From positions 41,736 to 105,735 of the IMG/VR virus record IMGVR_UViG_3300042691_029157: a stretch of DNA of 64,000 nt. One strand, given 5' to 3'. Below are positions 2,416-33,956 of the stretch, piece after piece. The DNA is from a virus. The position numbers and the translations under genes were made by a program. A model generated the notes under the pieces. The model was not told the DNA's origin. It saw nothing but the letters and a program-made list of their open reading frames with translations, and made no database searches. How positions within the stretch are numbered: the stretch's first letter is position 1; every line of letters starts with the position of its first letter.

Positions 2416-2431
2416 ATGAAAAAAATAAAAG

Positions 2432-2439
2432 TATTTATA
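2432..2439 (+). promoter_or_regulatory. Candidate late promoter box TATTTATA
   Basis: TATTTATA lies 13 bases upstream of the ATG at 2453 in the 37-base gap between two structural genes. The same box recurs before many other structural genes in the window. No -35-like element is obvious. Promoter function is inferred from recurrence only. Confidence 0.45.
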
Positions 2440-2452
2440 GATAAAATTAAAA

Positions 2453-4654
2453 ATGGCTAATATAAAAATTTCGCAATTACCAGAATTTACAGGGTCAACA
2501 GATAATACTTGGCTTATATTAAATAATTCAGCTCAAACTGAAACATATAAAATAACAAAAGAAAGTTTATTTTCTGGTATAACAACTTACACTGAAATCA
2601 CTTATAATGAGTTGTATTCTTTATACACCGGAGGGACGTTAACACCTGGTCAATTTTACTTAATGACAGATTTCCAAACTTGTTATGACCAACCAAACTA
2701 CGATAATCTTCGTAGTCCTATATTTTCGGATAACTATATGACAGGTGACACCGAACCAATTTTATTATTAGCAACTTCAATAACAGGATTCTCACCGACA
2801 GTACACTCAACACTACACCCTAAAGATAAAATAACATACGACATTTCTTGGAACATAACTGAAATTAGCAATAGTCCCGCGAAAGGTAGAATCACTGAAA
2901 GAATTGATAATTTTAGTAATAGAACTGATTATGACCACAGAAATATATTATTTAAAAGGTATATTGGATATTCGTATTATGAATCTGAACCACTTAGTGG
3001 ACTCGTTGGAATAAGTGGTATAACAGGGAACACAGGAGTATTATACGGTAATACAGGAACAACATTTAGTTCAAATTTTTCAACAGGTTCGTTTGTTGCG
3101 ATAGGTAATCTAAACCCTCGAATTTTTGAAGTCATATTAGTTAATAGTAATTCTTTGGCAACTATTTCAGGTGTTACAATAAATGAGACTAGTAATTCAT
3201 CATATTACACGGCCTATGATGATGGTGTTATGAGTTACTATCAACCTAATATAAGGGTGAATGAGGTTTTCGAATATACTACATTTAATGAGACAACCGC
3301 AGTTAACAATTATATTGGTAACCACTCAAATATATATATTGAGCTTGGCTCAGGAGATTTTCTTTTAGCAAACAACGTTTTTATTAGTGGTTCATTCACA
3401 AACAACACAATAGGAAATAGGTCATATAATAACACATTTAATGACGATTGTGACAATAATCAAATAGGTGATAGTTTTTATAACAACTCAACAAATGATG
3501 ATTTTGATGGAAACATCATCGGGGAAAACTTCAATAATAATTATATAACTGCGAATTTTAATAATAACAGAATTGGTAGTGATTTTAACTATAATGTCTT
3601 AATTGGTGGTTCTTTTTATAGAAACAATATTGGGAATAACTTTGAAGATAACACTTGGACTAATGGAGATTTTCAAAATAATGAAATAGGTAACCAATTT
3701 GCAAATAATAAAATCTATAATGACTTTTATAATAACGACATCGGCAATGGTTATAACAACAATAAAAGCTATTCAAACTATTATCGTAATTTGATTGGTA
3801 ATGGTTATAATAATAATACTGTATATAACCAATTTTATGAAAATAATATCGGTCAAGTTTTTGGGGGTAATACGATTGGTATTAGTACAAATATAGGGTC
3901 ATACAATTTTGTAGGGAATAGTATTGGAAGTGATTGTGCAACTAATACAATTAGATATAACTTCCAAAGTAACAATATTTTAAATGATTTTTATAATAAT
4001 AATATATATTCAAACATATATAAAAACTCAATATTAAATGGGTTTGAAGGTAACACAATCGGAGATTCAGACAATTTAAATCTTACCTTTGAAAACAATC
4101 AAATTATGAATGAATTCAAGGGTAATAACATTCAGGGGGATTTTTGGAGTAATCATATTAAAACAAATTTTAAAGCAAACCAAACATTTGCCGAATTTGG
4201 TTATAATAATGTTGGTTATAGTTTCTTCGTGAATAATATGAGTGGACAAACAATCAGTAACAATATCGGAGATTATTTTGAATTTAATAATTGTTATGGT
4301 TCATTTTCATATAACACAATAGGTACTAATTTTTATAGTAACGAAGTTCTAGATGGTTTTGGTTTTGGCGGAGGTTCATATAGAGGAAATGTGATTGGTA
4401 ATAATTTCTATGATAATAACATCGGAGAATATTTTTATGATAATACTATTGGAGATAATTTTACTAATAACATTGTTGTAGATTATTTCCAAATGAATAG
4501 AATATGTAATAGTGTAATATCTATTGATTTTTCAGAATCAACTCACGTCTACGGATTTTATAATTGCGAAATCTTTACAAGGGCAGGTGGCGGACAAAGA
4601 TTATCATACTACGACTCAAATGATGTCCTAAATATAACAAACATAACAGAATAA
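2453..4654 (+). CDS. Asn-rich beta-solenoid tail fibre protein
   Basis: 733 aa. The N-terminus (MANIKISQLPEFTGSTDN) matches the short leader common to phage fibre and adhesin subunits that dock on the tail, followed by a mixed region to about residue 300. Residues about 305-680 consist of an imperfect 9-10 residue repeat of the form N-x-I-G-x-x-F-x-x-N. This predicts a narrow right-handed beta-solenoid with Asn ladders and stacked Ile/Phe. The C-terminus ends in a short Gly-rich/Tyr-rich cap. A TATTTATA box precedes the gene, and the next fibre-like gene follows after 2 bases. Likely role: a rigid rod of a tail fibre or spike. The receptor is unknown, and no hydrolase motif is visible. Confidence 0.65.
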   Translation: MANIKISQLPEFTGSTDNTWLILNNSAQTETYKITKESLFSGITTYTEITYNELYSLYTGGTLTPGQFYLMTDFQTCYDQPNYDNLRSPIFSDNYMTGDTEPILLLATSITGFSPTVHSTLHPKDKITYDISWNITEISNSPAKGRITERIDNFSNRTDYDHRNILFKRYIGYSYYESEPLSGLVGISGITGNTGVLYGNTGTTFSSNFSTGSFVAIGNLNPRIFEVILVNSNSLATISGVTINETSNSSYYTAYDDGVMSYYQPNIRVNEVFEYTTFNETTAVNNYIGNHSNIYIELGSGDFLLANNVFISGSFTNNTIGNRSYNNTFNDDCDNNQIGDSFYNNSTNDDFDGNIIGENFNNNYITANFNNNRIGSDFNYNVLIGGSFYRNNIGNNFEDNTWTNGDFQNNEIGNQFANNKIYNDFYNNDIGNGYNNNKSYSNYYRNLIGNGYNNNTVYNQFYENNIGQVFGGNTIGISTNIGSYNFVGNSIGSDCATNTIRYNFQSNNILNDFYNNNIYSNIYKNSILNGFEGNTIGDSDNLNLTFENNQIMNEFKGNNIQGDFWSNHIKTNFKANQTFAEFGYNNVGYSFFVNNMSGQTISNNIGDYFEFNNCYGSFSYNTIGTNFYSNEVLDGFGFGGGSYRGNVIGNNFYDNNIGEYFYDNTIGDNFTNNIVVDYFQMNRICNSVISIDFSESTHVYGFYNCEIFTRAGGGQRLSYYDSNDVLNITNITE
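3361..4500 (+). repeat. Coding repeat: roughly 10-residue Asn ladder units
   Basis: About 35-40 degenerate copies of a 27-30 base unit encode N-x-I-G-x-x-F-x-x-N. DNA-level identity between copies is low while the protein periodicity is strong, which fits an old beta-solenoid rather than recent tandem duplication. Confidence 0.7.
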
Positions 4655-4656
4655 AA

Positions 4657-5307
4657 ATGGCAACAAAATACATAATAGATAATTTATCAGGTCAGACTAT
4701 AGTTGGTGACCTTACAATTAATGGTAATATAACTGTAACAGGGATTACAAATAATAGAACTTATAGAGCATTACTAACTCAAACACCTATTTTAGTTGCA
4801 AATGACACAAGTCAGTTATATGGAAAATTTATCATAGGTGAAACTTATACAATTACAGACTATGTTTCAAATGACGATTTTAGTAATATTGCCTATGTTC
4901 AAAGTGGTGTAATAAATCAAACTGGATGTGTATTTATTGCCACGGGGGAGACCCCAAGTTATTGGGGAGATTACTCAGAAATTACTTCGTCAGGTAATCT
5001 TTGTGTTTCAGTGTTAGAAAATAGTTTGGGATTTGAAATTAATTGGGGGAAGGTTTCTCCTGGAAGCTACTATACTGGGGGGACTAACCCAATATCTGTA
5101 GACACATTCCCAAGAAATAATACAATTGTAAACACACAATCAAAATATATAGAATCTATTGACGAATTTATAATTTCTTTTGTTTCATTAGGGAATATTA
5201 ATAATCCTGATAGTTTTATTGTGTTAAGTAATAAAGGAGTGACTGATTTAACTAATGCTTTAGATTCATTATTTTACACACCAATTGAAATAATCATAAA
5301 GGACTAA
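4657..5307 (+). CDS. Tail fibre-like protein
   Basis: 216 aa. It starts 2 bases after the solenoid fibre gene and is probably co-transcribed with it. The N-terminus reads NLSGQTIVGDLTINGNITVTG, the short beta repeat (G-x-L-x-I-x-G-N-x) typical of phage fibre shafts and chaperone-like tips. The middle (FIIGETYTITDY, DDFSNIA, TGCVFIATG) looks like a compact beta domain. There is no transmembrane segment, signal peptide or catalytic motif. It is probably a fibre tip or accessory subunit of the preceding protein. The family assignment rests on style and position. Confidence 0.5.
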   Translation: MATKYIIDNLSGQTIVGDLTINGNITVTGITNNRTYRALLTQTPILVANDTSQLYGKFIIGETYTITDYVSNDDFSNIAYVQSGVINQTGCVFIATGETPSYWGDYSEITSSGNLCVSVLENSLGFEINWGKVSPGSYYTGGTNPISVDTFPRNNTIVNTQSKYIESIDEFIISFVSLGNINNPDSFIVLSNKGVTDLTNALDSLFYTPIEIIIKD

Positions 5308-5336
5308 TAATTAATTTAAAACAATTAAATAATATT

Positions 5337-5585
5337 ATGAGAATTAACATTTTAACAGACAACGATAAGGTAGAACAAGTTAGAGAAGCTTGGATAAATA
5401 AAAATGTAATGAAAATACCTTGTTCACCAACAGGAGAAGAACCCGCGACTCATTGGTATTGTACAATGGCTGGGTCTGAAGAACAAATGATGAAGATTTA
5501 CAATAAAAAAAATTTATCTATAATGGAGTTAGAAATTGGACCAAAAGAATTTCTTAACAAATGGGGATTGAAAATCATAAGGTGA
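5337..5585 (+). CDS. Small protein of unknown function
   Basis: 82 aa, not recognised. It is a mixed-charge soluble protein with two Cys (residues about 29 and 42), a Trp-rich centre (HWYCTMAGSEEQMMKIY) and a basic C-terminus. Its stop codon overlaps the possible GTG start of the next gene (GTGA), so the two are probably translationally coupled. It may act with the oxygenase that follows, but nothing in the sequence shows how. Confidence 0.55.
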   Translation: MRINILTDNDKVEQVREAWINKNVMKIPCSPTGEEPATHWYCTMAGSEEQMMKIYNKKNLSIMELEIGPKEFLNKWGLKIIR

Positions 5586-6190
5586 TACGAAATTTTATAA
5601 CTAAAGAAGAAGTTATAAAAATTTTAGAATGGGTAAATTCATTAGAATCGGATAAAGGTAATCCAAATCACCACTTATCTGAAATCACAAAAGATTTAAA
5701 TGGTAAATCTACTATTATAGATATTTCAAATAATAGTTACACAAACTATATCACAAACTTTCAGTCTGTCAGTCAGGTTTTAAAAATTAAAGTTCCTGAT
5801 TTTATTGAGTCCATTATTGGCAGATTATCTGAAACTTTAGAAATCCCAGCAGACAATATATTTTTACAAGTTGTTGATATGGACTCAGGTGGTAAGATAA
5901 CCCCCCATTATGATGCATCAATAGACGGATATATTAATTATAAATGTAATATTAGTGTCTTATCCGAAGACTATCAAATTTTCATCGGAGAAGACGTACT
6001 TAATATATCTGAAACCGATTTATATTGTTTTGAAGCATCTCTTTACAAACATTGGACTAATGAATTTAAATCACGAAGAGTGTTTTTAAGTTTTGGGTTT
6101 ATCCTCCCCTACAAAACCCTAGGTAGAAATGAAAATGACCCAAGAATTAGATTAAGTCAAAGAATATATAAGTATTTCCAAAGGGTATAA
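5561..6190 (+). CDS. 2OG-Fe(II) oxygenase, prolyl-4-hydroxylase-like
   Basis: 209 aa from ATG 5561. GTG 5582, overlapping the previous stop, is an equally good start and would give 202 aa. The double-stranded beta-helix iron motif is visible: H116-x-D118 in KITPHYDAS, distal H164 in YKHWTNEF, and R172/R173 in SRRVFLSFGF, which would bind the 2-oxoglutarate carboxylate. All ligands are present, so it should be active. The family uses Fe(II), O2 and 2-oxoglutarate to hydroxylate peptide or other substrates, and the fold resembles prolyl 4-hydroxylases more than TET/JBP DNA oxygenases. It sits among Pro/Thr-rich virion proteins and upstream of a Skp1-GlcNAc-transferase-like gene, so hydroxylation of virion proline is a reasonable inference. 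The substrate is unproven. Confidence 0.75.
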   Translation: MGIENHKVIRNFITKEEVIKILEWVNSLESDKGNPNHHLSEITKDLNGKSTIIDISNNSYTNYITNFQSVSQVLKIKVPDFIESIIGRLSETLEIPADNIFLQVVDMDSGGKITPHYDASIDGYINYKCNISVLSEDYQIFIGEDVLNISETDLYCFEASLYKHWTNEFKSRRVFLSFGFILPYKTLGRNENDPRIRLSQRIYKYFQRV

Positions 6191-6204
6191 ATCATTTATT
6201 TGGA

Positions 6205-6212
6205 TATTTATT
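6205..6212 (+). promoter_or_regulatory. Candidate late promoter box TATTTATT
   Basis: TATTTATT lies 5 bases before the ATG at 6218 in a 27-base gap. If it is a -10-type element, the transcript would be almost leaderless. It is one member of the recurrent box set. Confidence 0.35.
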
Positions 6213-6217
6213 TTTAA

Positions 6218-7087
6218 ATGCCGTCAGTAGTAATTTTAAAAAGTGATAATTTTTCAGGTGATGTTGCTAATATCACATTCTACCCATTAACGGGTGGTAG
6301 TATTGATATTGGTTCACAAATAATCCCCTATGTTTATGTTACGGATTACTACGAAGGAACATATAACCTTAATTTTACAGCTCAAAGTCAAAGTTGTGAG
6401 GTTTTTGTTTCACCATCAGGACTTACAGAGTTAGTGTTTGGTTTAGGTAGGGGAATATCAATTGATAATAGAGATAAGAATTACTTAATTAAAGATAAAA
6501 TAACAATTAATAAGAGTCCAATCATATCTAGGTACTGGGAACAAAATGAATGGTGGGGAAACCAAGGAATTACACCACAATGTGTTGGATATTCTTGGGC
6601 ACATTGGATTGAGGATGGTCCCGTAAAACACGGAGGTACTCCACCTATTGTACACCCAACATTAATTTATAAGGAGTCTCAAAAGATTGACGAGTGGCCT
6701 GGAGAAAATTATGATGGTACATCTGTTAGGGCTGGTGCCAAGTATTTACAACAAACAAACCGAATTAAAAACTACTATTGGGCATTTGACATTAACACAC
6801 TAATTAACACCGTATTAAATGTTGGGCCCGTAGTTGCTGGGACATATTGGTATAGAAATATGTTTTATCCTGATAGAAATGGTAATATTCGTATTGGAGG
6901 ACCTATTGTTGGTGGACACGCCTATGTTATTAATGGAATTGATACTAGAAAAAGACTATTTAGAATAAAGAATAGTTGGGGAAGGGGATGGGGATTACAA
7001 GGTAATGCCTATATCTCATTTACAGATATGGAGAGATTAATAAAAATGAATGGTGAAATTTGTTTGGCCACAGAAAATAATTTTTAA
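6218..7087 (+). CDS. Papain-like (C1A) cysteine protease with virion module
   Basis: 289 aa. Residues 1-63 form a small beta module that recurs at the start of the next two genes. Residues about 105-289 are a papain-family domain: oxyanion Q116 and nucleophile C122 (WWGNQGITPQCVGYSW), H234 in GGHAYVING and N252 in IKNSWGRGWG. The catalytic set is complete. There is no signal peptide and no long inhibitory propeptide, so the N-terminal module probably anchors it to the virion instead. Likely role: hydrolysis of a host surface protein during adsorption, or processing of neighbouring virion proteins; context cannot distinguish these. It is followed after 2 bases by the mucin-like gene. Confidence 0.85.
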   Translation: MPSVVILKSDNFSGDVANITFYPLTGGSIDIGSQIIPYVYVTDYYEGTYNLNFTAQSQSCEVFVSPSGLTELVFGLGRGISIDNRDKNYLIKDKITINKSPIISRYWEQNEWWGNQGITPQCVGYSWAHWIEDGPVKHGGTPPIVHPTLIYKESQKIDEWPGENYDGTSVRAGAKYLQQTNRIKNYYWAFDINTLINTVLNVGPVVAGTYWYRNMFYPDRNGNIRIGGPIVGGHAYVINGIDTRKRLFRIKNSWGRGWGLQGNAYISFTDMERLIKMNGEICLATENNF

Positions 7088-7089
7088 CT

Positions 7090-8409
7090 ATGTCACAATA
7101 CGTTGAATTTTTCGATACAAACTATAGTGGACAAACTGCACAAGTTACGTTTGAGTCTTTAAACGGGTCTGTTTATGATTTGGGTGAACAAGTAGTCCCC
7201 TTTACCTTTTATGGTGACGATATTGAACCTAATTTATCGGTTTATGGTAAATATACTTTTTACTATATTAGATTTTATAAAACCTGTATTATTAATGTCT
7301 TACCATCAACAACTACAACAACCACTTTTATTCCTGTAACAACCACAACTACTTTTGAACCAATTACTACAACTACCACAACAATACTTAATATTTGCGA
7401 TATAAGTTATGACTTAAATTTTGTACCTCAGAATACTGAAGTAATCTTTACCTCAACTATTAGCCCTGGGTCTGTAAATGCCGAATATACCCTAGTAACA
7501 ACTGAACCACTAGATTTTGATTTATCAGTATCATTCCAACATGTGTTAGGCACATTATCTGGTGATAGTCTAATTATTAGTTCGGGAGTTACAATACAAG
7601 CTGGCGATTTATCAGGAAGTACACTTATTGTAGTCGATTACGATTATTATAATTTAAATGATACTTCAGAATTTACAAATTTACAATTCTCACCTCAGAA
7701 TATTGAGATAGGTTTTAATTTTACTGCCGACACCATCTTTACCCCACCACCGACACCTACACTAACTTTAACAAATTCCTCAACTCCAACCAATACACCT
7801 ACTTTGACTCAGACATTAACTGAGACCCCCACACTAACCCCAACTAGTACACCTACTAATACTCCAACAAATACCCCTACTTTAACTGAAACCCCAACTA
7901 GTACACCTACTAACACACCAACATTAACGGAGACGCCAACAAACACACCTACTTTAACTGAAACTCCAACTAGTACACCAACTTTAACACCTACCAATAC
8001 GCCTACCTTAACAGAAACTCCAACTTTGACACCATCATCAACATTACCTGAATTAACTCCTACACCTACGGCAACAATGGAAACATTACCACCCACAGAT
8101 AATTTTAATTGGTCATTTGACGACGCTGGAGGTTCCGAGTTAAATACTTATAGAATATTAAAAAATGGGTTAGAAGTTGTTAATACGAATGTTAGTCGTA
8201 GTGGTTCATTTATGGTTACGGATAAAGATGTGGTTAGAATTATAGTAAATATGGTCACAGGTGAAAGTGTCACGTCACAATTAGACGAGGATGGAATATT
8301 GATATACGATGAAACCGCTAGTAGGTCCCCTCAAGTTTTGGATAGTGGGAATATAACAATAAGAGATGGGTCTAATTATATTGCAACAGGTGTAATAATT
8401 AGTAAATAA
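7090..8409 (+). CDS. Mucin-like virion protein with shared modules
   Basis: 439 aa. Residues 1-70 are the same beta module seen at the starts of the genes at 6218 and 8423 (motif SGQTAQVTFESLNG here). A Thr tract follows (7306-7389), then a domain at 7396-7695 closely related to one in the first gene of the window (shared LDFDLSVSFQHVLGTLSGDS). Next comes a Thr/Pro linker of about 117 residues (7744-8094) and a C-terminal beta domain of about 105 residues. No catalytic motif is seen. It is probably an extended surface fibre. The Thr/Pro linker contains no Asp before Ser/Thr, so it lacks the D-(S/T)-x motif known for Bacteroidota general O-glycosylation. Confidence 0.6.
   Translation: MSQYVEFFDTNYSGQTAQVTFESLNGSVYDLGEQVVPFTFYGDDIEPNLSVYGKYTFYYIRFYKTCIINVLPSTTTTTTFIPVTTTTTFEPITTTTTTILNICDISYDLNFVPQNTEVIFTSTISPGSVNAEYTLVTTEPLDFDLSVSFQHVLGTLSGDSLIISSGVTIQAGDLSGSTLIVVDYDYYNLNDTSEFTNLQFSPQNIEIGFNFTADTIFTPPPTPTLTLTNSSTPTNTPTLTQTLTETPTLTPTSTPTNTPTNTPTLTETPTSTPTNTPTLTETPTNTPTLTETPTSTPTLTPTNTPTLTETPTLTPSSTLPELTPTPTATMETLPPTDNFNWSFDDAGGSELNTYRILKNGLEVVNTNVSRSGSFMVTDKDVVRIIVNMVTGESVTSQLDEDGILIYDETASRSPQVLDSGNITIRDGSNYIATGVIISK
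7744..8094 (+). repeat. Long Thr/Pro linker (TPTLTETPT-type repeats)
   Basis: About 117 codons of P-T-x-T units, many as T-N-T-P-T-L-T-E-T-P. Codon choice differs between copies, so the repeat is kept at protein level. The complementary strand shows a spurious Val/Gly-rich reading frame, which is not a gene. Confidence 0.85.
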
Positions 8410-8422
8410 TTTATAAAGTAAA

Positions 8423-8923
8423 ATGGGAACAGTTATAACATTAAAGAGTCAAATTTTTTCAGGAGATGTTGCAAACATTACATTTTATCCTTTAAGTGGT
8501 GGTTCTATTGATTTAGGTTCGCATATAATTCCTTACACATTTGACGTTGAAAATTACGAAGGAACCTACGATTTGTACTTTATAAACCAAGGTCAAAATT
8601 GTCAATTAATTATACCTGAAACAACCACAACAACAACGGAGCCACCAACATTCAACTATTTTACCGTAGCAAAGAGTTGTGAGGTCTGTGACCCACAATT
8701 GTGTGAAAATTTCTTAAATAATAGTAGTGGAGGGTATTACTTTAATTTTATAACTTACCAAGAAATAACCCCACCAATGATACTTACAATAGATGGTTGT
8801 TGTATGTATATAGAATCAGTTTTAAATCAAAATTTACCAGGTTATTCCACATTCTTAGTGACTGAAAATCAGTATCAAATTGTGAGTGGAACAATTTCAG
8901 AAGAATGTCCAAAATGTCTTTAA
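8423..8923 (+). CDS. Cys-rich virion-type protein with shared N-terminal module
   Basis: 166 aa. Residues 1-65 are about as similar to residues 1-63 of the papain-like protease as expected of a recent duplicate (shared SGDVANITFYPL, GSIDLG/IG, YEGTY). A Thr tract (8620-8643, T6-E-P-P) then links to a Cys-rich C-terminal domain of about 90 residues with nine Cys (CEVCDPQLC, DGCCMY, EECPKC). The Cys pairs could form disulfides or bind metal. No known family is recognised for that domain. It is the third gene in a row built on this N-terminal module. Confidence 0.6.
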   Translation: MGTVITLKSQIFSGDVANITFYPLSGGSIDLGSHIIPYTFDVENYEGTYDLYFINQGQNCQLIIPETTTTTTEPPTFNYFTVAKSCEVCDPQLCENFLNNSSGGYYFNFITYQEITPPMILTIDGCCMYIESVLNQNLPGYSTFLVTENQYQIVSGTISEECPKCL

Positions 8924-8967
8924 TTTTAACAATTAGTTTTTAATTTTATTCATAAAAGAATAATTTT

Positions 8968-10218
8968 ATGAAAATTTTTATCCAAATTGCGTCTTATAGA
9001 GACCCACAATTAATCCCAACCATAGAGTCAGCCATTGAAAATGCAAAAAATCCAAAAAATTTAAGATTTGGTATTGCTAGACAATTCAACCCAAATGATG
9101 GATTTGATGACCTTACAAAATATAAAAAAGATAAACGTTTTAGAATTATTGATATCCCTTATAACGAATCACAAGGTGCTTGTTGGGCTAGAAATCTTAT
9201 ACAACAAGTCTATAAGAATGAAGAATATACTCTTCAGGTTGATTCTCATATGAGATTTGATAAGGACTGGGACGAGACCTTAATTGGAATGATTACACAA
9301 CTCCAAGAGAAAGGACATAAGAAACCTTTATTAACGGGTTATGTATCGTCTTTTGACCCTGATAATGACCCTGCCGCAAGAATTAAAGAGCCTTGGAGAA
9401 TGGCTTTTGATAGATTTATTCCTGAAGGTGCGGTTTTCTTTTTACCCGAGACAATCCCTGGATGGAAAAAAATGACCGAGCCAATCCCTGCGAGATTTTA
9501 TTCCGCACATTTTTGTTTTACAGTAGGACAGTTCTCAAAAGAAGTTCAACACGACCCTGAATACTATTTTCACGGAGAAGAAATTTCAATTGCGGCAAGA
9601 GCATATACACACGGATATGATTTATTTCACCCTCATAAAGTTGTTATTTGGCATGAGTATACCCGTAAAGGTAGAACAAAACAATGGGACGACGATAAAA
9701 AGTGGGTAGAAAGAAATAACAAGTGCCATTTAAAAAATCGTAAATTATTCTCGATGGATGGTGAAAAATATAATCCTGAAGAATTTGGTGTTTTTGGTTT
9801 TGGTACTGAAAGAACTTTAAGAGACTATGAAAAATATGCAGGATTACATTTTGGTAAACGAGCTGTTCAACAATGGACACTAGATAAAAAATATCCACCA
9901 AATCCAAATACGTTTAGTACTGAACAGGAATGGGAAGATAGTTTTGCAAGAATTTTCAAACATTGTATTGATTTAGGGTTTTCACAGGTACCTGAAAAAG
10001 ATTATGAATTTTGGGTTGTTGCTTTCCACGATGAAAAAGATAATACTTTATACAGAAAAGACGCAGACATTAATGAAATTAATAACCTAATGCGTGACCC
10101 TGACGGGTATTGTAAATTGTGGAGAGACTTCCAAACTGCAGAACAACCAAAATATTGGGTTGTTTGGCCTTACTCTAAATCTAAAGGATGGTGTAACCGA
10201 ATCACTGGGAATTTATAA
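8968..10218 (+). CDS. Glycosyltransferase, Skp1-type GlcNAc-transferase family
   Basis: 416 aa. The N-terminus MKIFIQIASYRDPQL, then SQGACWARNLIQQ and LQVDSHMRFDKDWDE (the D-S-H nucleotide-sugar/metal motif), and GEEISIAARAYTHGYD match the GlcNAc family of GT-A enzymes (Pfam PF11397). Its best-known member, Dictyostelium Gnt1, adds GlcNAc to hydroxyproline on Skp1. There is no signal peptide or membrane helix, so it acts in the host cytoplasm. The length is ordinary for the family. The ATG lies in the 3' arm of a small inverted repeat (8951-8970). The next GT gene begins 5 bases downstream, forming an operon of four. Family call is strong; acceptor specificity is inferred from neighbours. Confidence 0.8.
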   Translation: MKIFIQIASYRDPQLIPTIESAIENAKNPKNLRFGIARQFNPNDGFDDLTKYKKDKRFRIIDIPYNESQGACWARNLIQQVYKNEEYTLQVDSHMRFDKDWDETLIGMITQLQEKGHKKPLLTGYVSSFDPDNDPAARIKEPWRMAFDRFIPEGAVFFLPETIPGWKKMTEPIPARFYSAHFCFTVGQFSKEVQHDPEYYFHGEEISIAARAYTHGYDLFHPHKVVIWHEYTRKGRTKQWDDDKKWVERNNKCHLKNRKLFSMDGEKYNPEEFGVFGFGTERTLRDYEKYAGLHFGKRAVQQWTLDKKYPPNPNTFSTEQEWEDSFARIFKHCIDLGFSQVPEKDYEFWVVAFHDEKDNTLYRKDADINEINNLMRDPDGYCKLWRDFQTAEQPKYWVVWPYSKSKGWCNRITGNL

Positions 10219-10223
10219 TTTTT

Positions 10224-12653
10224 ATGAAAATAGTTTTTTTAGCATTTACTAGTAAAAAATATGATGGTAATCATATTAAAATATCTGACGCTTCATTAAC
10301 AAGAAAAATGTCTTGTTTAGAGACATGGGTACCTAAAGTTGAGTCATTAGGTCACAAAGTTATTTTTTTTGATGGAGGTAATGATAAACTTACATACAAC
10401 CCAGTAGACAAGATATTACATTGTGTTTCACCTGAGACTTACGACCATAATCCACCAATCCAAGGGCAGACTAAATCATTTATGTTTGAAAGATTAAAAG
10501 AAGCAATAGGATGGGTGTTGAAAAATGAGGAATTTGATTATATTTTTAGAATTGACGATGGGTCTTATGTGAATCATTATGTTTTAGATAATGTTTTAGA
10601 AGAATTAGGTAATGCTGATGTATTACGTAATAATTCAGGTGGTGGTGCTGGTCTATTCTTATCAAAAAGAGTATGTAGTGGGTTAGTGAATCATGAAAAT
10701 TTAACAAACCAAACTATAGAAGATAAAGCTTTGTTTGAATTCATTAACAATGGAGATTTTGTTGTTAAAACGACAAATTTACTTTGTACTCAATATATTC
10801 TAGGTGAAAAATTTTTTACTATTCATTATACGAATGGTAAAAGACAATATTTTGTTGAGGATGTATTGGACTACTATTACCAAAATATTCCGATGAAGCG
10901 AAAAGTAATTATTGACTCGGATGTTAATTTTTGGAATCACACCCCTGTAAAAACTTGGTATGGTGATGGGGAATATACCGCTATGTGGTACGCCTACAAT
11001 AAAGATAAATACAATTGGGAGTTCTATGGAAGACAAGTGAGGAGTAGTTATGATTTCAGAGGATTTTGTCCTTTTGGGAAAAACTCTATTCACACATTAG
11101 TTATTCCAAATGTTGACATTTTTAAAAACACTAACCCCAAATTAATTGATGAGTACATTAATTCAGTTCAGGAAGGTGGTAGGTTAATTGTCCAATTTGA
11201 CGGGGAGGTTCAAAATAATTTTAATAATTTAAATTTAGAAACTACCGAAGTCGATGGGATAGACCTTAACGAAATAAGTGAGATGTTTGATTTTAAAGGT
11301 AAAAAATGGTTAGTCTTAGATAAAACCCCTAAAAAACAAAGTACGACAATATGTGCAGACACCAATTTAAAAATTGGTGTTTGTCAATTTTATACTGATA
11401 ACGTATTATATGGTAGGTATACTGAAGCTATTAATGAGAAATATTGTGAAGAAAATCATTATTATTATTTTGTAGAAAAAAATACTGAAAAAATAAGAAC
11501 TAAACTAGAGGGACGTGCCGCAACTTGGTATAAACCTAAACTAGTTTTAGAAATGTTAGAAAAAAATCCTAATTTAGATTATGTTTTATTTTTAGATATT
11601 GATGCGATTTTCTGTAACAATTATCGACGTATTGAGGAATTTATTCATGGTAATTTTGAGGTATTGATGACCGAAGATTTTGGACCCTCAATCGTTAATG
11701 CTGGAGTATTCTTAGTTAAAAATTCAGATTTTGTTAAAAAATTTATGCGTGATTGGTGGGATGTTTGTGAAGAATATCCACATTATAAAAACGCACTTTG
11801 GCATGACCAAACCTGTTTAAAATATGTACGCGAAAGATTAGACGATAGAACTAAATTTAAAATCATCCCTAATGGTGATTTAAATTCTAGAGATTACAAT
11901 GAGAATAAATTTATATTCCATGCATTCTCATATGGTAATACCCCATACAGAACTATCGACGTTATTTATCGAAATAAATTCAATATAAAAATAGATACAT
12001 CAAAATTTATGTTAACACAATTAGCGGAAATTTATCCCACGGATAAACACCACGAACATGACTACTTTAGTAAGATTTATGAAAAAACTTTTTCACCAAT
12101 AAAAGACCAAATTAAAAAATTTGTAGAGATTGGTGTTTTAGACGGGAATTCATTAAAAGTTTGGTCCGATTACTTTGTTAATTCTGAAATTTTGGGTTTA
12201 GATAATAACCCAGAATCAATTAGACAATTTAATAACTTTGAAAGGATTAGTATAAAACTTTTGGACCAGTCTAAAAAAGAAGAACTAATAAAGTTTTCAG
12301 AAGAAAATACTGACATTGATGTAATACTAGATGACGGGAGTCATAGGATGTACGACCAACAAATAACTTTAGCAACTTTATTTAAATCAATTAAAAGTGG
12401 AGGTATATTTGTGATGGAAGATTTACATACTAGTATTGAAGCCCTGATGCCTGAAAAAGCTTGGTGTAATTGGGGAGACCCTAAAAAAACTACGACCTTA
12501 CAAATGTTAGAAGAGTTTCAAAAAACAGGTAGAATTTTTTCTGATTATTTAACAGAATCTGAAACAAAATATCTAGAAGAAAATATAAAAAGTTGTGAAA
12601 TAGTTAAAGTAAGGCCTAATTGGAGTATTACTGCAATAATTGTTAAAAAATAA
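10224..12653 (+). CDS. Multidomain glycosyltransferase-methyltransferase
   Basis: 809 aa with at least three parts. Residues 1-230 look like a GT31/fringe-like domain (CLETWVP, KVIFFDGG, DYIFRIDDGSYVN), weakly supported. Residues about 230-370 are unassigned. Residues about 375-590 fit the GT34/GMA12-MNN10 type: YVLFLDIDAIFCN supplies the DxD, and NAGVFLVKNSDFVKKF follows. Residues about 595-809 are a class I SAM-dependent methyltransferase (FVEIGVLDGNSLKVW; DVILDDGSHRMYDQQ; GGIFVMEDLH), similar to the sugar O-methyltransferase MycE type. The fusion suggests assembly and capping of a short, methylated glycan. No membrane segment. It is flanked by other GTs at 5-base spacing. Confidence 0.7.
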   Translation: MKIVFLAFTSKKYDGNHIKISDASLTRKMSCLETWVPKVESLGHKVIFFDGGNDKLTYNPVDKILHCVSPETYDHNPPIQGQTKSFMFERLKEAIGWVLKNEEFDYIFRIDDGSYVNHYVLDNVLEELGNADVLRNNSGGGAGLFLSKRVCSGLVNHENLTNQTIEDKALFEFINNGDFVVKTTNLLCTQYILGEKFFTIHYTNGKRQYFVEDVLDYYYQNIPMKRKVIIDSDVNFWNHTPVKTWYGDGEYTAMWYAYNKDKYNWEFYGRQVRSSYDFRGFCPFGKNSIHTLVIPNVDIFKNTNPKLIDEYINSVQEGGRLIVQFDGEVQNNFNNLNLETTEVDGIDLNEISEMFDFKGKKWLVLDKTPKKQSTTICADTNLKIGVCQFYTDNVLYGRYTEAINEKYCEENHYYYFVEKNTEKIRTKLEGRAATWYKPKLVLEMLEKNPNLDYVLFLDIDAIFCNNYRRIEEFIHGNFEVLMTEDFGPSIVNAGVFLVKNSDFVKKFMRDWWDVCEEYPHYKNALWHDQTCLKYVRERLDDRTKFKIIPNGDLNSRDYNENKFIFHAFSYGNTPYRTIDVIYRNKFNIKIDTSKFMLTQLAEIYPTDKHHEHDYFSKIYEKTFSPIKDQIKKFVEIGVLDGNSLKVWSDYFVNSEILGLDNNPESIRQFNNFERISIKLLDQSKKEELIKFSEENTDIDVILDDGSHRMYDQQITLATLFKSIKSGGIFVMEDLHTSIEALMPEKAWCNWGDPKKTTTLQMLEEFQKTGRIFSDYLTESETKYLEENIKSCEIVKVRPNWSITAIIVKK

Positions 12654-12657
12654 AAAA

Positions 12658-13680
12658 ATGATAGACAACTCTAAAATTTTTGTTGTTGCTCATTGTTACA
12701 TGGTTAATGATTGGCAACTCAAACTTGAGGAGCAATTAAGAAAATTAGAATTGTTTGGGTTATATGAGAAAGCTGACGATATTTTCATATATTTAACGGA
12801 CGAAAAAAAAGAATACTCTAATATTGTTGAAACTCTTAAAATTAAATATGAAAAAATAAATTTTATTCATGGGTTCAAAAATTATGGAGAAGGTGTATTA
12901 GCACTTAATCAAGTGTATGAACTATCTTTTAAATATGAGGACGCCAAAATTCTTTATTTCCACACTAAAGGAGTATTTAATAAGTTCAAAAATTTTGTAA
13001 ACTTTGAAATTGATGAACTTAAAATTGAATCAGAAAATTCTTGGGTTGAGATGCTTGAATATTTTTTAATTGAAAAATGGAAAATATGTCTTGAAAAATT
13101 AAACACTTACAACATTGTTGGTGTACATTGTCACAATTTTTGGTATTGGGGAAATTTTTGGTGGGTAAATGCATACTATATTAGAAATAACATCCCTTTT
13201 ATGAATTTTTGGGGAGGTTCTAGGTGGCAGTGTGAAGCATGGTTAATGGAGTCTAATAAATTTAAAAACGACACAAAATACTATGAATTTTTTCATTTTT
13301 GTTATGACTCACACTACTCAATAATACCAAAATATTTTTACGATGGAACTGATTTATCAAACTTAAAAATTGAGTTGGTTAGTTCTGAATATGGATATTT
13401 TAATGAACAACGGGATGAAGGACGCAGTCTTCATAGCCAAGAAAAAATTACAATAGATGTTACAAACATTGTAGAGGAACAACTTAAAAAAAATAATTAT
13501 AAAAAATTAAACTTATCAAATAACGGATTTGTTGATTATGACCAGTTCTTTAAAACAGATATTGCAAAAGAACTACCAAAAAAATGGAGAACTTATTTTA
13601 AAACAAATATTGACCCAGAAAAAACTTATGTTGTATCGTCTTTTGAGGGTTTTTATTTAAATTTAGGAAATACAAAATAA
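12658..13680 (+). CDS. Putative glycosyltransferase
   Basis: About 340 aa from ATG 12658, which lies 4 bases after the previous stop; the longer frame from TTG 12640 would overlap the methyltransferase and is unlikely. Motifs include ILYFHTKGVFNKF, NIVGVHCHNFWYWGNFWW and NFWGGSRWQCEAWLME. These resemble little-studied GT-A-like proteins of polysaccharide and glycan loci, but I cannot name a CAZy family with certainty. There is no clear DxD triad beyond acidic clusters (KADDIFIYL). No signal peptide. Its place inside the four-gene GT operon supports a role in building the same glycan. Confidence 0.5.
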   Translation: MIDNSKIFVVAHCYMVNDWQLKLEEQLRKLELFGLYEKADDIFIYLTDEKKEYSNIVETLKIKYEKINFIHGFKNYGEGVLALNQVYELSFKYEDAKILYFHTKGVFNKFKNFVNFEIDELKIESENSWVEMLEYFLIEKWKICLEKLNTYNIVGVHCHNFWYWGNFWWVNAYYIRNNIPFMNFWGGSRWQCEAWLMESNKFKNDTKYYEFFHFCYDSHYSIIPKYFYDGTDLSNLKIELVSSEYGYFNEQRDEGRSLHSQEKITIDVTNIVEEQLKKNNYKKLNLSNNGFVDYDQFFKTDIAKELPKKWRTYFKTNIDPEKTYVVSSFEGFYLNLGNTK

Positions 13681-13687
13681 TTTAATT

Positions 13688-15364
13688 ATGAATAGTAAAG
13701 TTACAATTGTCACCGGATTGTGGGACTTAGGTAGGGAAAACTTAAATGGATGGGCACAACGTAGTTTTGATACGTATAAACAAAAATTTTTTGAATTACT
13801 AGAAACTGATGCAAATCTATGTATTTGGATTCCAAGGTCACTAGAGTCTGAGGTTTGGAAAATACGTAAGAGACATAACACCGTTGTTTATTTCAAAGAG
13901 CTAGAGGATTTTAAAACGTGGTTTCCATTTTTTAATGAATTACAAAAAATTAGAACAAATCCTGAATGGTTTAATTTTGCAGGGTGGTTAAAAGATTCCC
14001 CACAAGCGGGATTAGAATTTTACAATCCTATGATGATGTGTAAAATGTTTATGGTTAATGATACGGCTATACTTAATCCATTTAGAAGTGAATATTTTTA
14101 TTGGATTGATGGTGGGATAACGTCAACTGTTAATCCTGGTTATTTTACAACAGATAAAGTTTTTGATAGGTTACCAGAATATACACAATTTGTAGATAAA
14201 TTTACTTTTATCAGTTATCCATACACTGCAAATGATGAAATTCACGGATTTGAAAGAAAAAAAATGGCTCAATATTGTAATACTACTTTTGTTGAGTATG
14301 TGTGTCGAGGTGGTTTTTTTGGGGGTAGTAAAGAACAAGTACATGAAATAAACAATTATTATTATAATGTACTTTATAGAACAATAAATGAAGGTCTTAT
14401 GGGTGCGGACGAGTGTTTATTCACCATCCTTGCCCACAATTACCCAAATCAAATACATCGTTATGAAATTACTGGTAATGGATTAGTTTGGCCATTTTTT
14501 GAAAACTTAAAAACTTTTGACCCTAAAACACAAGTTAAGACTGATTTAAATATTAAAAAATGTTCCTTATATGTTTTAACATTTAATAGTCCAAACCAAT
14601 TTAAAACATTAATTAAATCTATGGAGGTCTACGACGAGGACTTCCTAAAACTTCCAAAAAAATATTTGATTAATAATTCAACAAACTCTGAAACTTATAT
14701 GGAATATGATAATCTATGTAAGGAATATGGTTTTACTCATTATAAACCCCATACAAATTTAGGAATATGTGGTGGTAGACAATATATTGCGGAACATTTT
14801 GATGAGAGTGATTCCGATTTTATGATGTTTTTTGAGGATGATATGTTTTTCTATTCAGGTCCCGATGTAAATTGTAAGAATGGGTTTGTTAGAAAAATAG
14901 ATAGACTTTATACAAAAAGTCTTTTGATAACCAAAGAAAATAGTTTTGATTTTCTTAAATTGAATTTCACGGAATTCTTCGGAGACAATTCAACACAATG
15001 GAGTTGGTATAACGTACCTCAGAATGTTAGACAAAAATATTTTCCTGAGAATGATAAGTTACCACAACAAGGATTAGACCCTAACGCCCCCAAAACAAAA
15101 TATGATAAAATAATGTCATATAAAGGTGTTCCATATGCAACAGGGGAAGTTTATTATTGTAATTGGCCACAGGTTATGACCAAAGAAGGTAGTCGTAAAG
15201 TATTTTTAAATACTAAATGGGCTCACCCTCACGAACAAACTTGGATGTCTCACGTTTACCAAATGACCAAAGAAAATTTGATTAATGCTGGAATTTTATT
15301 AGCAACACCTACTGAACACAATAGATTTGACCACTATGACAAAGAATTAAGAAAAGAATCTTAA
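13688..15364 (+). CDS. Two-domain glycosyltransferase (HtrL/YibB-like plus GT2-like)
   Basis: 558 aa. Residues 1-285 resemble the HtrL/YibB/WlaTC group (TIVTGLWDLGR, YFYWIDGGI, GGFFGGSKEQV, GADECLFTI), a GT-A-like family of LPS/LOS loci. Residues about 292-558 look like a GT2-type domain (SLYVLTFNSPNQFKTLIKS, NLGICGGRQYIAEHF, FMMFFEDDMFFYSG with E-D-D as the metal site). Two GT domains in one chain again suggest sequential sugar addition. It is the last gene of the GT run and sits 7 bases after the previous stop. A structural gene follows. Confidence 0.65.
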   Translation: MNSKVTIVTGLWDLGRENLNGWAQRSFDTYKQKFFELLETDANLCIWIPRSLESEVWKIRKRHNTVVYFKELEDFKTWFPFFNELQKIRTNPEWFNFAGWLKDSPQAGLEFYNPMMMCKMFMVNDTAILNPFRSEYFYWIDGGITSTVNPGYFTTDKVFDRLPEYTQFVDKFTFISYPYTANDEIHGFERKKMAQYCNTTFVEYVCRGGFFGGSKEQVHEINNYYYNVLYRTINEGLMGADECLFTILAHNYPNQIHRYEITGNGLVWPFFENLKTFDPKTQVKTDLNIKKCSLYVLTFNSPNQFKTLIKSMEVYDEDFLKLPKKYLINNSTNSETYMEYDNLCKEYGFTHYKPHTNLGICGGRQYIAEHFDESDSDFMMFFEDDMFFYSGPDVNCKNGFVRKIDRLYTKSLLITKENSFDFLKLNFTEFFGDNSTQWSWYNVPQNVRQKYFPENDKLPQQGLDPNAPKTKYDKIMSYKGVPYATGEVYYCNWPQVMTKEGSRKVFLNTKWAHPHEQTWMSHVYQMTKENLINAGILLATPTEHNRFDHYDKELRKES

Positions 15365-15377
15365 TTGAATATCGTAG

Positions 15378-15385
15378 TATTTATT
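15378..15385 (+). promoter_or_regulatory. Candidate late promoter box TATTTATT
   Basis: TATTTATT lies 3 bases before the ATG at 15389, in the gap after the glycosyltransferase operon. It would give a leaderless transcript if it were a -10 element, so its role is uncertain. Confidence 0.35.
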
Positions 15386-15388
15386 GTT

Positions 15389-15769
15389 ATGGAATTTTAT
15401 ATTAAAAAGGGTGCGACTCTTCCATTACTTAAAATGCAAGTAGTTAAGGATGGAAGAAGTGACTATCATAATTTTATGGATTTAATTGAGACATCAACTA
15501 TTCTATTTTCTATGGTTGATACTGAAACAGGTATTCCTAAATTCCTATCCAAACAAGGAGGATTTGTATCTAAAAATTTCTTAAATGAAACAACCCCAAC
15601 AGAGTTTTATATCTATTATAAATTCTCTGAAAAGGATACAAATAAACCTGGAAGGTATGAAGGTCAATTTTTATTGAGAAATGAACAAGGTAACCTAATA
15701 GTCCCAATACGAGAAAAACTATATATTAACGTACAAGATAGTTTTATTTCCGACAAAGCTTGTTGTTAA
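15389..15769 (+). CDS. BppU-like baseplate/fibre accessory protein
   Basis: 126 aa from ATG 15389 (MEFYIKKGATLPLLKMQV); the longer frame from TTG 15365 adds eight poorly supported residues. The pattern I-K-K-G-x-T-L-P-L-L, then STILFSMVDTETG, and finally KPGRYEGQFLLRNEQGNL resembles the Ig-like N-terminal domain of BppU baseplate proteins, in which a small beta sandwich docks receptor-binding parts. No transmembrane segment. C-terminal Cys pair. It has its own TATTTATT box and is followed by the DNA polymerase promoter region. Family similarity is by eye and moderate. Confidence 0.5.
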   Translation: MEFYIKKGATLPLLKMQVVKDGRSDYHNFMDLIETSTILFSMVDTETGIPKFLSKQGGFVSKNFLNETTPTEFYIYYKFSEKDTNKPGRYEGQFLLRNEQGNLIVPIREKLYINVQDSFISDKACC

Positions 15770-33928: not shown

Positions 33929-33943
33929 AAAATAGATTAAATG

Positions 33944-33951
33944 TATTTATT
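33944..33951 (+). promoter_or_regulatory. Candidate late promoter box TATTTATT
   Basis: TATTTATT lies 5 bases before the ATG at 33957. An upstream in-line ATG at 33953 is out of frame. Leader would be extremely short. Confidence 0.35.
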
Positions 33952-33956
33952 AATGT

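What the first reader, a model, noticed from the sequence alone, without database searches (positions are those of the whole stretch)
5561..15364. Possible phage pathway for hydroxylation and glycosylation of its own mucin-like fibres
Seen: a 2OG-Fe(II) oxygenase with all ligands and prolyl-4-hydroxylase character (5561-6190), Pro/Thr-rich virion-type proteins on both sides (1-2415, 7090-8923), then four GT genes. The first GT belongs to the Skp1-GlcNAc-transferase type and the second begins with a GT31-like domain. Known: in Dictyostelium a prolyl 4-hydroxylase and this GlcNAc-transferase type act in sequence on Skp1 hydroxyproline; in plants GT31 enzymes glycosylate hydroxyproline. Inference: the phage hydroxylates Pro (or Thr) in its linkers and builds a short, partly methylated glycan on them. 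The repeats lack the D-(S/T)-x motif of the host O-glycosylation route, so a phage enzyme set would be needed.
Basis: partly seen in the sequence, partly recalled or inferred. Interest (0 to 1): 0.9.

Follow-up and report, generated by a model that had tools for sequence, protein, structure and literature searches.

The report
Phage sugar-coating genes beside fibres
An uncultured phage carries a set of sugar-attaching enzymes next to threonine-rich fibre-type proteins, which fits mucin-like sugar coating of its own particles, but the nearby oxygen-using hydroxylase gene belongs to a separate two-gene unit and is probably not part of that pathway.

Summary
The genes are real. 5561-6190 encodes a 2OG-Fe(II) oxygenase (His116, Asp118, His164, Arg172/173 invariant in 28 relatives; confident fold) with no convincing family match. 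Structure ties prolyl hydroxylases with AlkB enzymes. 8968-10218 is a strong GT60/PF11397 enzyme heading a glycan operon that includes a GT34-like/sugar-O-methyltransferase protein and a YibB-type GT.

Comparative tests split the proposed pathway. GT60 goes with T/P-rich proteins: of 40 oxygenase-bearing records, all 20 with GT60 have Thr-Pro repeats against 11 of 20 without. Cultured phages XacN1 and RAS14 share the GT60...YibB operon and have many Thr-Pro repeats; XacN1 was reported to have at least two glycoproteins. The oxygenase is in 2 of 50 GT60 records, occurs in phages without the repeats, is not near T/P-rich ORFs (6 of 37, 7.6 expected), and travels with an 82-aa protein and an Asn-rich fibre gene. 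Thr is usually the regular linker residue (0.80 of its phase; Pro 0.50; 122 segments).

Caveat: repeats are common in these phages, and a non-enzyme fibre gene is even closer to them. Best reading: direct mucin-type Thr O-glycosylation by the GT60 operon, plus a separate p82-oxygenase cassette of unknown substrate. Hydroxyproline-linked glycans: unsupported, not excluded.

The parts
1..2415 (+). T/P-rich virion-type protein (open at window start); Thr-x linker at nt 1033-1263, plus Thr-run tracts
   Evidence: phrog_15511 (unknown function) 1.2e-07
2453..4654 (+). Asn-rich repeat fibre-type protein ('NNrep', repeats like N-x-I-G-x-x-F-x-x-N); commonest neighbour of the oxygenase cassette
   Evidence: within 6 kb upstream of the oxygenase in 53 of 54 loci (near-duplicates included) with at least 3.5 kb upstream
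4657..5307 (+). p216, fibre-type protein recurrent near the cassette
5337..5585 (+). p82: 82-aa protein overlapping the oxygenase start; ferredoxin-like model, weak PII-like structural matches
   Evidence: present in 77 of 80 oxygenase loci, the other 3 begin at a contig end
5561..6190 (+). 2OG-Fe(II) oxygenase, P4H/PHD- or AlkB-like fold, catalytic residues invariant
6218..7087 (+). papain-like peptidase; its N-terminal segment resembles that of the 8423 ORF
   Evidence: phrog_16701 2.5e-57; PF00112 sub-threshold; the 8423 protein matches its start at 60% (row L001)
7090..8409 (+). T/P-rich virion-type protein; (Thr-x)n linker nt 7720-8106
8423..8923 (+). small protein of the same module with one short Thr tract
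8968..10218 (+). GT60 polypeptide GlcNAc-transferase-type enzyme, head of the glycan operon
   Evidence: PF11397 1.6e-72; phrog_24687 1e-168; 59 loci in viral contigs; XacN1 and RAS14/CM1 44-49%
10224..12653 (+). multidomain: unassigned N-terminal part, GT34/PBCV-1 A064R-D1-like GT, C-terminal sugar O-methyltransferase-like domain
   Evidence: PF05637 4.8e-13; PDB 8ia9 demethylmacrocin O-MT 7.3e-18, 3ssm 3.3e-10, 2p6w 0.0037
12640..13680 (+). GT-like protein without a convincing family match (GT assignment not shown)
13688..15364 (+). HtrL_YibB-type protein with a weak second GT-like domain; conserved end of the GT60 operon
   Evidence: PF09612 2.6e-16; phrog_842 0.005; relative within 8 kb downstream of GT60 in 29 of 41 deduplicated loci; full-length relatives in XacN1 (42%) and RAS14 (41%)

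Best explanation
Two separable units sit together in the fibre module. (1) A GT60-headed operon builds a decorated O-glycan on the phage's own T/P-rich virion-type proteins. The most likely first step is transfer of GlcNAc straight onto Thr of the (Thr-x)n stalks, as in protist mucins, followed by extension by the GT34/A064R-like, unassigned and YibB-type enzymes and O-methylation of a sugar by the C-terminal domain of the second gene. (2) A p82-oxygenase cassette, probably a protein hydroxylase of the PHD/P4H-like kind, has a different substrate (a fibre such as the Asn-rich neighbour, p82 itself, or a host protein). Shown here: families, invariant catalytic residues, fold, genomic associations, Thr regularity. 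Inferred: acceptor residue, sugars, order of steps, place in the cell, oxygenase substrate.
For: GT60 far above cut-off. Of 40 oxygenase-bearing records, 20 of 20 with GT60 have (TP)3 against 11 of 20 without, Fisher P 0.0012. T/P-rich ORF in the fetched locus (up to 10 kb each side) in 50 of 59 GT60 loci; (TP)3 in 41 of 50 GT60 records. GT60 within two genes of a T/P-rich ORF in 28 of 41 loci, 11.9 expected. GT60 nearer to (TP)3 sites than random positions in 34 records (KS P 1.6e-5; combined P 0.003). Cultured, distant relatives: XacN1 and RAS14 share GT60 and the full-length YibB-type gene 3.9-3.3 kb further on, have 29 and 19 (TP)3 sites against 0 and 1 for the reversed pattern, XacN1 has 11 proteins with T/P-rich stretches, and its authors detected at least two glycoproteins and suggested the phage GTs (PMC5852040, passages). 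No oxygenase relative in isolate phages. Genes downstream of GT60 include YibB-type (10), FkbM MT (7), carbamoyltransferase (6), PLOD-type GT (5), GT10 (4), rhamnosyl O-MT (4), UDP-galactopyranose mutase (2), sulfotransferase (1) among 113 proteins scanned. Thr fills 0.80 and Pro 0.50 of their phases in 122 linker segments; T > P in 119, P > T in 1. Separateness of the oxygenase.
Against: No virion or activity data for this phage; which XacN1 proteins are glycosylated was not seen (supplement not held). T/P-rich repeats are common in this phage group: 14 of 19 DnaB-relative records have (TP)3 and there GT60 shows no clear link (6 of 7 against 8 of 12). The Asn-rich fibre gene, not an enzyme, is even closer to T/P-rich ORFs (22 of 26 within two genes, 7.1 expected), so adjacency partly shows only membership of the fibre module. 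In the NNrep set the GT60 test is weak (8 of 14, 5.4 expected, P 0.11). In XacN1 and RAS14 no T/P-rich frame lies within 9 kb of GT60. In XacN1's 11 T/P-rich proteins Thr leads in 7, Pro in 3, one tie, a weaker pattern than in the viral contigs. Nine of 50 GT60 records have no (TP)3. Counts are not corrected for common descent. (Thr-x)n could be kept for stiffness alone.
Confidence: 0.55

Rival explanations
1. One reading: the oxygenase hydroxylates Pro in the TP linkers, GT60 adds GlcNAc to hydroxyproline as on Skp1, and the other enzymes extend and methylate the chain.
For: Oxygenase fold as close to viral and algal prolyl 4-hydroxylases (5c5t Z 14.4; 3gze, solved with a Ser-Pro peptide, Z 14.3) as to anything; same ~10 kb region in the window; the Skp1 initiating enzyme is GT60 (PMC6939170, passage).
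Against: Oxygenase in 2 of 50 GT60 records; GT60 in 20 of 40 oxygenase records; 9 of 40 oxygenase records without (TP)3; no proximity of oxygenase to T/P-rich ORFs (6 of 37, 7.6 expected); Pro occupancy of linkers 0.513 in oxygenase loci against 0.484 in others, P 0.14; Thr rather than Pro is usually the regular residue.
Confidence: 0.06
2. The p82-oxygenase cassette modifies the Asn-rich fibre protein (or another fibre of the module), for example by Asn, Asp or Pro hydroxylation that stabilises the fold.
For: NNrep within 6 kb upstream in 53 of 54 oxygenase loci, in several directly NNrep-p82-oxygenase; NNrep in 0 of 33 DnaB-relative records, which also lack the oxygenase; of 50 GT60 records 5 have an NNrep match: 2 carry the oxygenase, 1 ends at the NNrep gene, 2 are short partial matches. 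Two of 28 relatives weakly match Asp/Asn hydroxylase PF05118 (best E 0.11).
Against: 23 of 55 NNrep loci with enough sequence (near-duplicates included) lack the oxygenase; in several of these NNrep sits straight before what reads as the DNA polymerase, so the link may be shared gene order. NNrep with (36) and without (12) the oxygenase are alike in composition, with slightly more Asn motifs and greater length in the former, untested. L069 has the cassette without NNrep.
Confidence: 0.3
3. The oxygenase acts on a host protein (for example a translation factor) or works with p82 as a sensor of 2-oxoglutarate/oxygen.
For: P. putida P4H, also solved in complex with EF-Tu, is among the best structural matches (4j25, 4iw3, Z 13.8-13.9); p82's best structural matches are PII-like proteins (Z 6.7).
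Against: The cassette stays behind the fibre genes in 53 of 54 loci; p82's Z is below 8, which the tool says may be a common arrangement, and only two of five p82 models reached pLDDT 80.
Confidence: 0.25
4. The oxygenase and GTs modify phage DNA (hydroxylated and glucosylated bases), or the oxygenase repairs it (AlkB-like).
For: AlkB homologues tie with P4H in structure (ALKBH6 Z 14.3, ALKBH3 14.2); the cassette often lies next to DNA polymerase.
Against: No thymidylate-synthase/hydroxymethylase family in this record and three relatives (G000, G001, G002, G006); 2 of the 6 records searched have one. GT60 operons hold protein/sugar-decorating genes; fibre-module location.
Confidence: 0.12

Closest known systems
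GT60 polypeptide alpha-GlcNAc-transferases (Skp1 Gnt1; protist mucin-type initiating enzymes)
   Same: Same family model (PF11397); family acts on Skp1 Hyp and on Ser/Thr-rich mucin domains (PMC8724618, PMC6939170, passages)
   Different: Phage enzyme, acceptor untested; no hydroxylase coupling seen
Xanthomonas jumbo phage XacN1 virion glycoproteins
   Same: Isolate with GT60 (ORF334), carbamoyltransferase and YibB-type gene in one run, T/P-rich proteins, at least two glycoproteins reported and phage GTs proposed as makers (PMC5852040, passages)
   Different: No oxygenase relative found; glycosylated proteins and sugars not known to me; no second-gene GT/methyltransferase
Chlorovirus PBCV-1 A064R (GT-GT-methyltransferase) capsid glycan enzyme
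   Same: Multidomain protein with a GT34-like GT and a sugar methyltransferase; the middle part of 10224-12653 matches structure 2p6w (E 0.0037; A064R from PMC9614988, passages; that 2p6w is A064R-D1 is my reading of title and paper)
   Different: PBCV-1 glycans are N-linked to the capsid; domain order differs and the N-terminal part here is unassigned
Mimivirus L230 (lysyl hydroxylase plus collagen-type glycosyltransferase)
   Same: A viral hydroxylate-and-glycosylate activity on collagen-like viral sequence (PMC9614988, passage)
   Different: One bifunctional protein acting on Lys; here hydroxylase and GTs are separable genes
Mycobacteriophage virion glycosylation (Freeman et al. 2023)
   Same: Glycans on phage structural proteins
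   Different: Known to me here only through a citing passage in PMC12619734: capsid and tail tube, not Thr-rich fibres
Cyanophage 2OG-Fe(II) oxygenases
   Same: T4-like phages with this superfamily (14 of 16 genomes in PMC3037559, passages)
   Different: There tied by guess to DNA repair or 2OG levels; the family here has no 2OG family match in Pfam or PHROGs

Membership tests
2OG-Fe(II) oxygenase superfamily | H-x-D...H iron triad and basic 2OG anchor | tested here: met
   H116, D118, H164, R172, R173 invariant in 28 of 28; their roles are assigned from recalled family knowledge
2OG-Fe(II) oxygenase superfamily | double-stranded beta-helix fold | tested here: met
   model pLDDT 85.6; vCPH 5c5t Z 14.4, rmsd 2.7 over 151 residues
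prolyl 4-hydroxylase | closer in structure to P4H/PHD than to AlkB | tested here: inconclusive
   5c5t 14.4, 7vjv ALKBH6 14.3, 3gze 14.3, 8jnr ALKBH3 14.2
prolyl 4-hydroxylase | sequence match to a known P4H family model | tested here: inconclusive
   no 2OG family for the window protein in Pfam or PHROGs at E <= 1 or NCBIfam at E <= 0.1; two of 28 relatives weakly match PF05118
prolyl 4-hydroxylase | peptidyl-proline hydroxylation | not testable with these tools
   needs an assay
GT60 | PF11397 above curated cut-off | tested here: met
   245.3 bits against 21
GT60 | UDP-GlcNAc:polypeptide activity and acceptor residue | not testable with these tools
   needs an assay
GT31 (N-terminal part of 10224-12653) | family match | tested here: inconclusive
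   no Pfam family at E <= 1 with its best stretch before residue 406; not folded
Skp1-type hydroxylase-then-GT60 pathway | hydroxylase and GT60 occur together | tested here: not met
   oxygenase in 2 of 50 GT60 records, GT60 in 20 of 40 oxygenase records; records may be fragments, and another hydroxylase family was not searched for
phage virion glycosylation system | glycan on virion protein | not testable with these tools
   needs virion mass spectrometry; reported for XacN1 (PMC5852040, passage)

The most novel reading that the evidence does not exclude
A widespread phage-encoded mucin-type O-glycosylation: GT60 puts GlcNAc directly on Thr of (Thr-x)n stalks, and variable neighbouring genes extend it and cap it with methyl, carbamoyl or sulfate groups, giving phages an evolvable sugar coat on their fibres. 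(The bolder form, a hydroxyproline-linked glycan made with the p82-oxygenase cassette, is not excluded but I put it near 0.06.)
Probability: 0.48. Interest if true: 0.8.

Novelty: new variant of a known kind. Interest (0 to 1): 0.57.

Why it matters
If right, many phages carry mucin-like, enzymatically sugar-coated fibre-type proteins, with a recognisable gene signature (Thr-x stalks + GT60 + capping enzymes + YibB-type gene) that can be tested by mass spectrometry, including in cultured phages. It would extend reported phage virion glycosylation to Thr-rich stalks and give a function to repeats that are common in these phages. The p82-oxygenase pair is a separate open question: a conserved phage oxygenase for which no relative was found among isolate phages.

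Tried and rejected
Rejected: oxygenase-TP linkage; oxygenase-GT60 coupling; DNA hypermodification by the hydroxymethylase route in this phage (a TET/JBP route was not searched separately). PDB sequence search with the oxygenase profile gave one chance-level match; with GT60 and the YibB-type gene, nothing at E <= 0.1. No oxygenase relative in isolate phages (tblastn) or, by a pattern scan, in the genome collection (26 stretches matched a pattern, none confirmed). p82: none in isolate phages. NNrep: one 21%-coverage match, in an uncultured phage record. GT60 relatives also occur on 8 plasmid records, not followed. Paper searches showed, among the rows listed, no report of a phage prolyl hydroxylase acting on fibres or of GT60 on Thr-rich phage proteins; lists were cut (for example 15 of 65 and 15 of 249 papers) and the library is open-licence only.

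Limits of counts. Searches used 40 of 80 oxygenase loci (near-duplicates and short contigs dropped by hand); searches used 50 of 59 GT60 loci; searches used 19 and 33 of 80 DnaB-relative loci (77/78 found nothing; the same queries rang). One search's 54 and one search's 55 loci include near-duplicates. Searches used 113 of 146 ORFs listed; 25 of 44 families were shown. One search used 34 GT60 records whose sites were all listed; records without any (TP)3 site cannot enter it, and two usable records (G072, G078, by oversight) and a near-duplicate (G106) were left out. One search was an earlier form (GT60 30 of 43, 13.0 expected; oxygenase 7 of 46, 9.9 expected), another the first (21 of 59, 10.6 expected). 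In one search the YibB-type GT was near T/P-rich ORFs in the oxygenase + NNrep sets (17 of 21 within two genes, 6.4 expected) but not clearly in the GT60 set (14 of 35, 10.5 expected). Searches used loci L001-L140 with only exact duplicates removed; 'oxygenase-free' includes 9 loci not tested. Negative results in virus records may be due to fragments.

Full report
What is there. The window is bases 41,736-105,735 of a 105,735-base virus record with tail sheath, tail tube and T4-type baseplate genes. The region 1-15769 is a fibre and glycan module followed by a DNA polymerase. The oxygenase at 5561-6190 has no 2OG family match in Pfam, PHROGs or NCBIfam, but 120 viral-contig stretches encode relatives, of which 80 were kept. 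In 28 aligned sequences H116, D118, H164 and R172/R173 are invariant, so it is very likely an active enzyme. The AlphaFold model (pLDDT 85.6) matches the PBCV-1 collagen prolyl hydroxylase (Z 14.4), ALKBH6 (14.3), an algal prolyl 4-hydroxylase with a Ser-Pro peptide (14.3) and ALKBH3 (14.2): a tie. The closest predicted viral structure is an uncharacterised protein of an uncultured phage (49% identity).

The glycan operon. 8968-10218 is GT60/PF11397. 10224-12653 carries an unassigned N-terminal part, a GT34-like domain that also hits a PBCV-1 capsid-glycan enzyme structure (2p6w, E 0.0037) and a C-terminal methyltransferase like the macrolide-sugar enzyme 8ia9 (7.3e-18) and 3ssm. PBCV-1 A064R is a GT-GT-methyltransferase that builds the end of the capsid glycan (PMC9614988, passages). 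13688-15364 is HtrL_YibB-type; 12640-13680 has no convincing match. A second sugar cluster lies upstream in the same record, about bases 30,100-37,600, minus strand: a tandem GT2, a rhamnosyl-O-methyltransferase-like gene and a weak GT4, with an exonuclease-like gene among them.

(a) In 40 deduplicated oxygenase-bearing records, GT60 is in 20 and the DNA pattern for (Thr-Pro)3 in 31. All 20 GT60 records have the pattern; of the 20 without GT60, 11 have it (Fisher P 0.0012). The nine records without the pattern include ones of 430, 271 and 226 kb. (b) In 50 GT60 records, 41 have the pattern and 2 the oxygenase. (c) In DnaB-relative control records the pattern is in 14 of 19 and GT60 in 7 of 19, 6 of these 7 with the pattern against 8 of the other 12: repeats are common in this phage group and this control shows no clear link. 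(d) Gene order: GT60 lies within two genes of a T/P-rich ORF in 28 of 41 loci (11.9 expected), the oxygenase in 6 of 37 (7.6 expected), DNA polymerase in 5 of 30 (4.6 expected); but the Asn-rich fibre gene reaches 22 of 26 (7.1 expected), so this test shows membership of the fibre module, not an enzyme-substrate pair, and in the NNrep set GT60 itself is only 8 of 14 (5.4 expected). GT60 is also nearer to (TP)3 sites than random in 34 records (median 3.0 kb, KS P 1.6e-5). No count is corrected for common descent.

Cultured relatives. tblastn in the isolate collection finds GT60 in three jumbo phages: XacN1, CM1 and RAS14 (44-49% identity), and no oxygenase. XacN1 and RAS14 were opened. In both, a full-length relative of the YibB-type gene (42 and 41%) ends a short run of genes that starts with GT60; in XacN1 the gene after GT60 is annotated as a carbamoyltransferase. 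No T/P-rich frame lies within 9 kb of GT60, but the whole genomes hold 29 and 19 (TP)3 sites, against 0 and 1 for the pattern read backwards, and 11 XacN1 ORFs have T/P-rich stretches (174, 180, 190, 232-236, 325, 350, 372). [quoted passage not shown] I could not see which proteins, and they report no tail fibres in micrographs (same passages), so 'fibre' may be the wrong word there. This is the nearest thing to experimental support: a GT60 phage without this oxygenase that has glycoproteins.

What the oxygenase travels with. p82 (5337-5585) overlaps its start and is found in 77 of 80 loci; the other three begin at a contig end. The Asn-rich gene is within 6 kb upstream in 53 of 54 loci with enough sequence, and absent from 33 DnaB-relative records that also lack the oxygenase. 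The reverse does not hold: of 55 NNrep loci 32 have the oxygenase, and in several of the others NNrep sits directly before what reads as the polymerase. The pair therefore looks like an optional two-gene insert behind the fibre genes. NNrep with and without it are alike in composition. p82 is modelled as a ferredoxin-like fold whose best matches are PII-like proteins, but at Z 6.7 and with only two of five models above pLDDT 80; since PII proteins bind 2-oxoglutarate this is an attractive lead and no more.

Which residue matters in the linkers. In 122 distinct 40-residue segments with T+P of at least 60%, a criterion even-handed between the two, Thr fills 0.80 of its best alternate phase and Pro 0.50; Thr leads in 119, Pro in 1, two ties. 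In the 7720-8106 linker Thr codons are mixed (22 ACA, 21 ACT, 9 ACC, 4 ACG), but in the 1033-1263 linker 24 of 29 are ACA, so slippage of a DNA repeat may contribute there. In XacN1 Thr leads in 7 of 11, Pro in 3. Pro occupancy does not differ between oxygenase loci and others (0.513 and 0.484, P 0.14). This fits Thr as acceptor and Pro as spacer; structural stiffness could give the same pattern.

Mechanism. GT60 contains both the Skp1 hydroxyproline enzyme and enzymes implicated in starting mucin-type glycans on Ser/Thr-rich domains of protists (PMC8724618, PMC6939170, passages). With no hydroxylase coupling, direct GlcNAc-Thr is the simpler reading. The genes behind GT60 (methyl-, carbamoyl-, sulfo- and fucosyl-type transferases, UDP-galactopyranose mutase) look like a variable chain-extending and capping kit.

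Verdict. Main reading as a whole 0.55; hydroxyproline-linked glycan 0.06; oxygenase substrate open.

Noticed in passing
window 5337-5585: 82-aa p82 goes with the oxygenase and is predicted to have a ferredoxin-like fold whose best structural matches are PII-like proteins (weak, Z 6.7), with an invariant S-x-x-G-x-x-P-x-T-H-x-x-C motif from the end of strand 2 into strand 3.
   Followed up: partly
window 6218-7087: Papain-like peptidase whose N-terminal segment resembles that of the neighbouring ORF 8423-8923; XacN1 ORF382 is a relative (41%). Possibly virion-attached.
   Followed up: partly
L292:2116-9586 (record bases about 30,100-37,600, minus strand): Second sugar cluster upstream of the window: tandem GT2 protein, rhamnosyl-O-methyltransferase-like gene, weak GT4, and unassigned genes.
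   Followed up: partly
window 2453-4654: Asn-rich repeat protein with roughly 10-residue repeats and no Pfam or PHROG family; 68 loci in viral contigs.
   Followed up: partly
L065:1291-10621: One locus has two Asn-rich genes and two p82 copies (the first directly behind its Asn-rich gene, the second after two minus-strand ORFs), only the second p82 with an oxygenase: p82 can be duplicated apart from the enzyme.
   Followed up: no
genes downstream of GT60 in the viral-contig loci (A3) and XacN1 ORF333 (L141:10409-12706): Carbamoyltransferases (6 of 113 proteins scanned; which loci is not listed) recur behind phage GT60, and one follows GT60 in XacN1.
   Followed up: no
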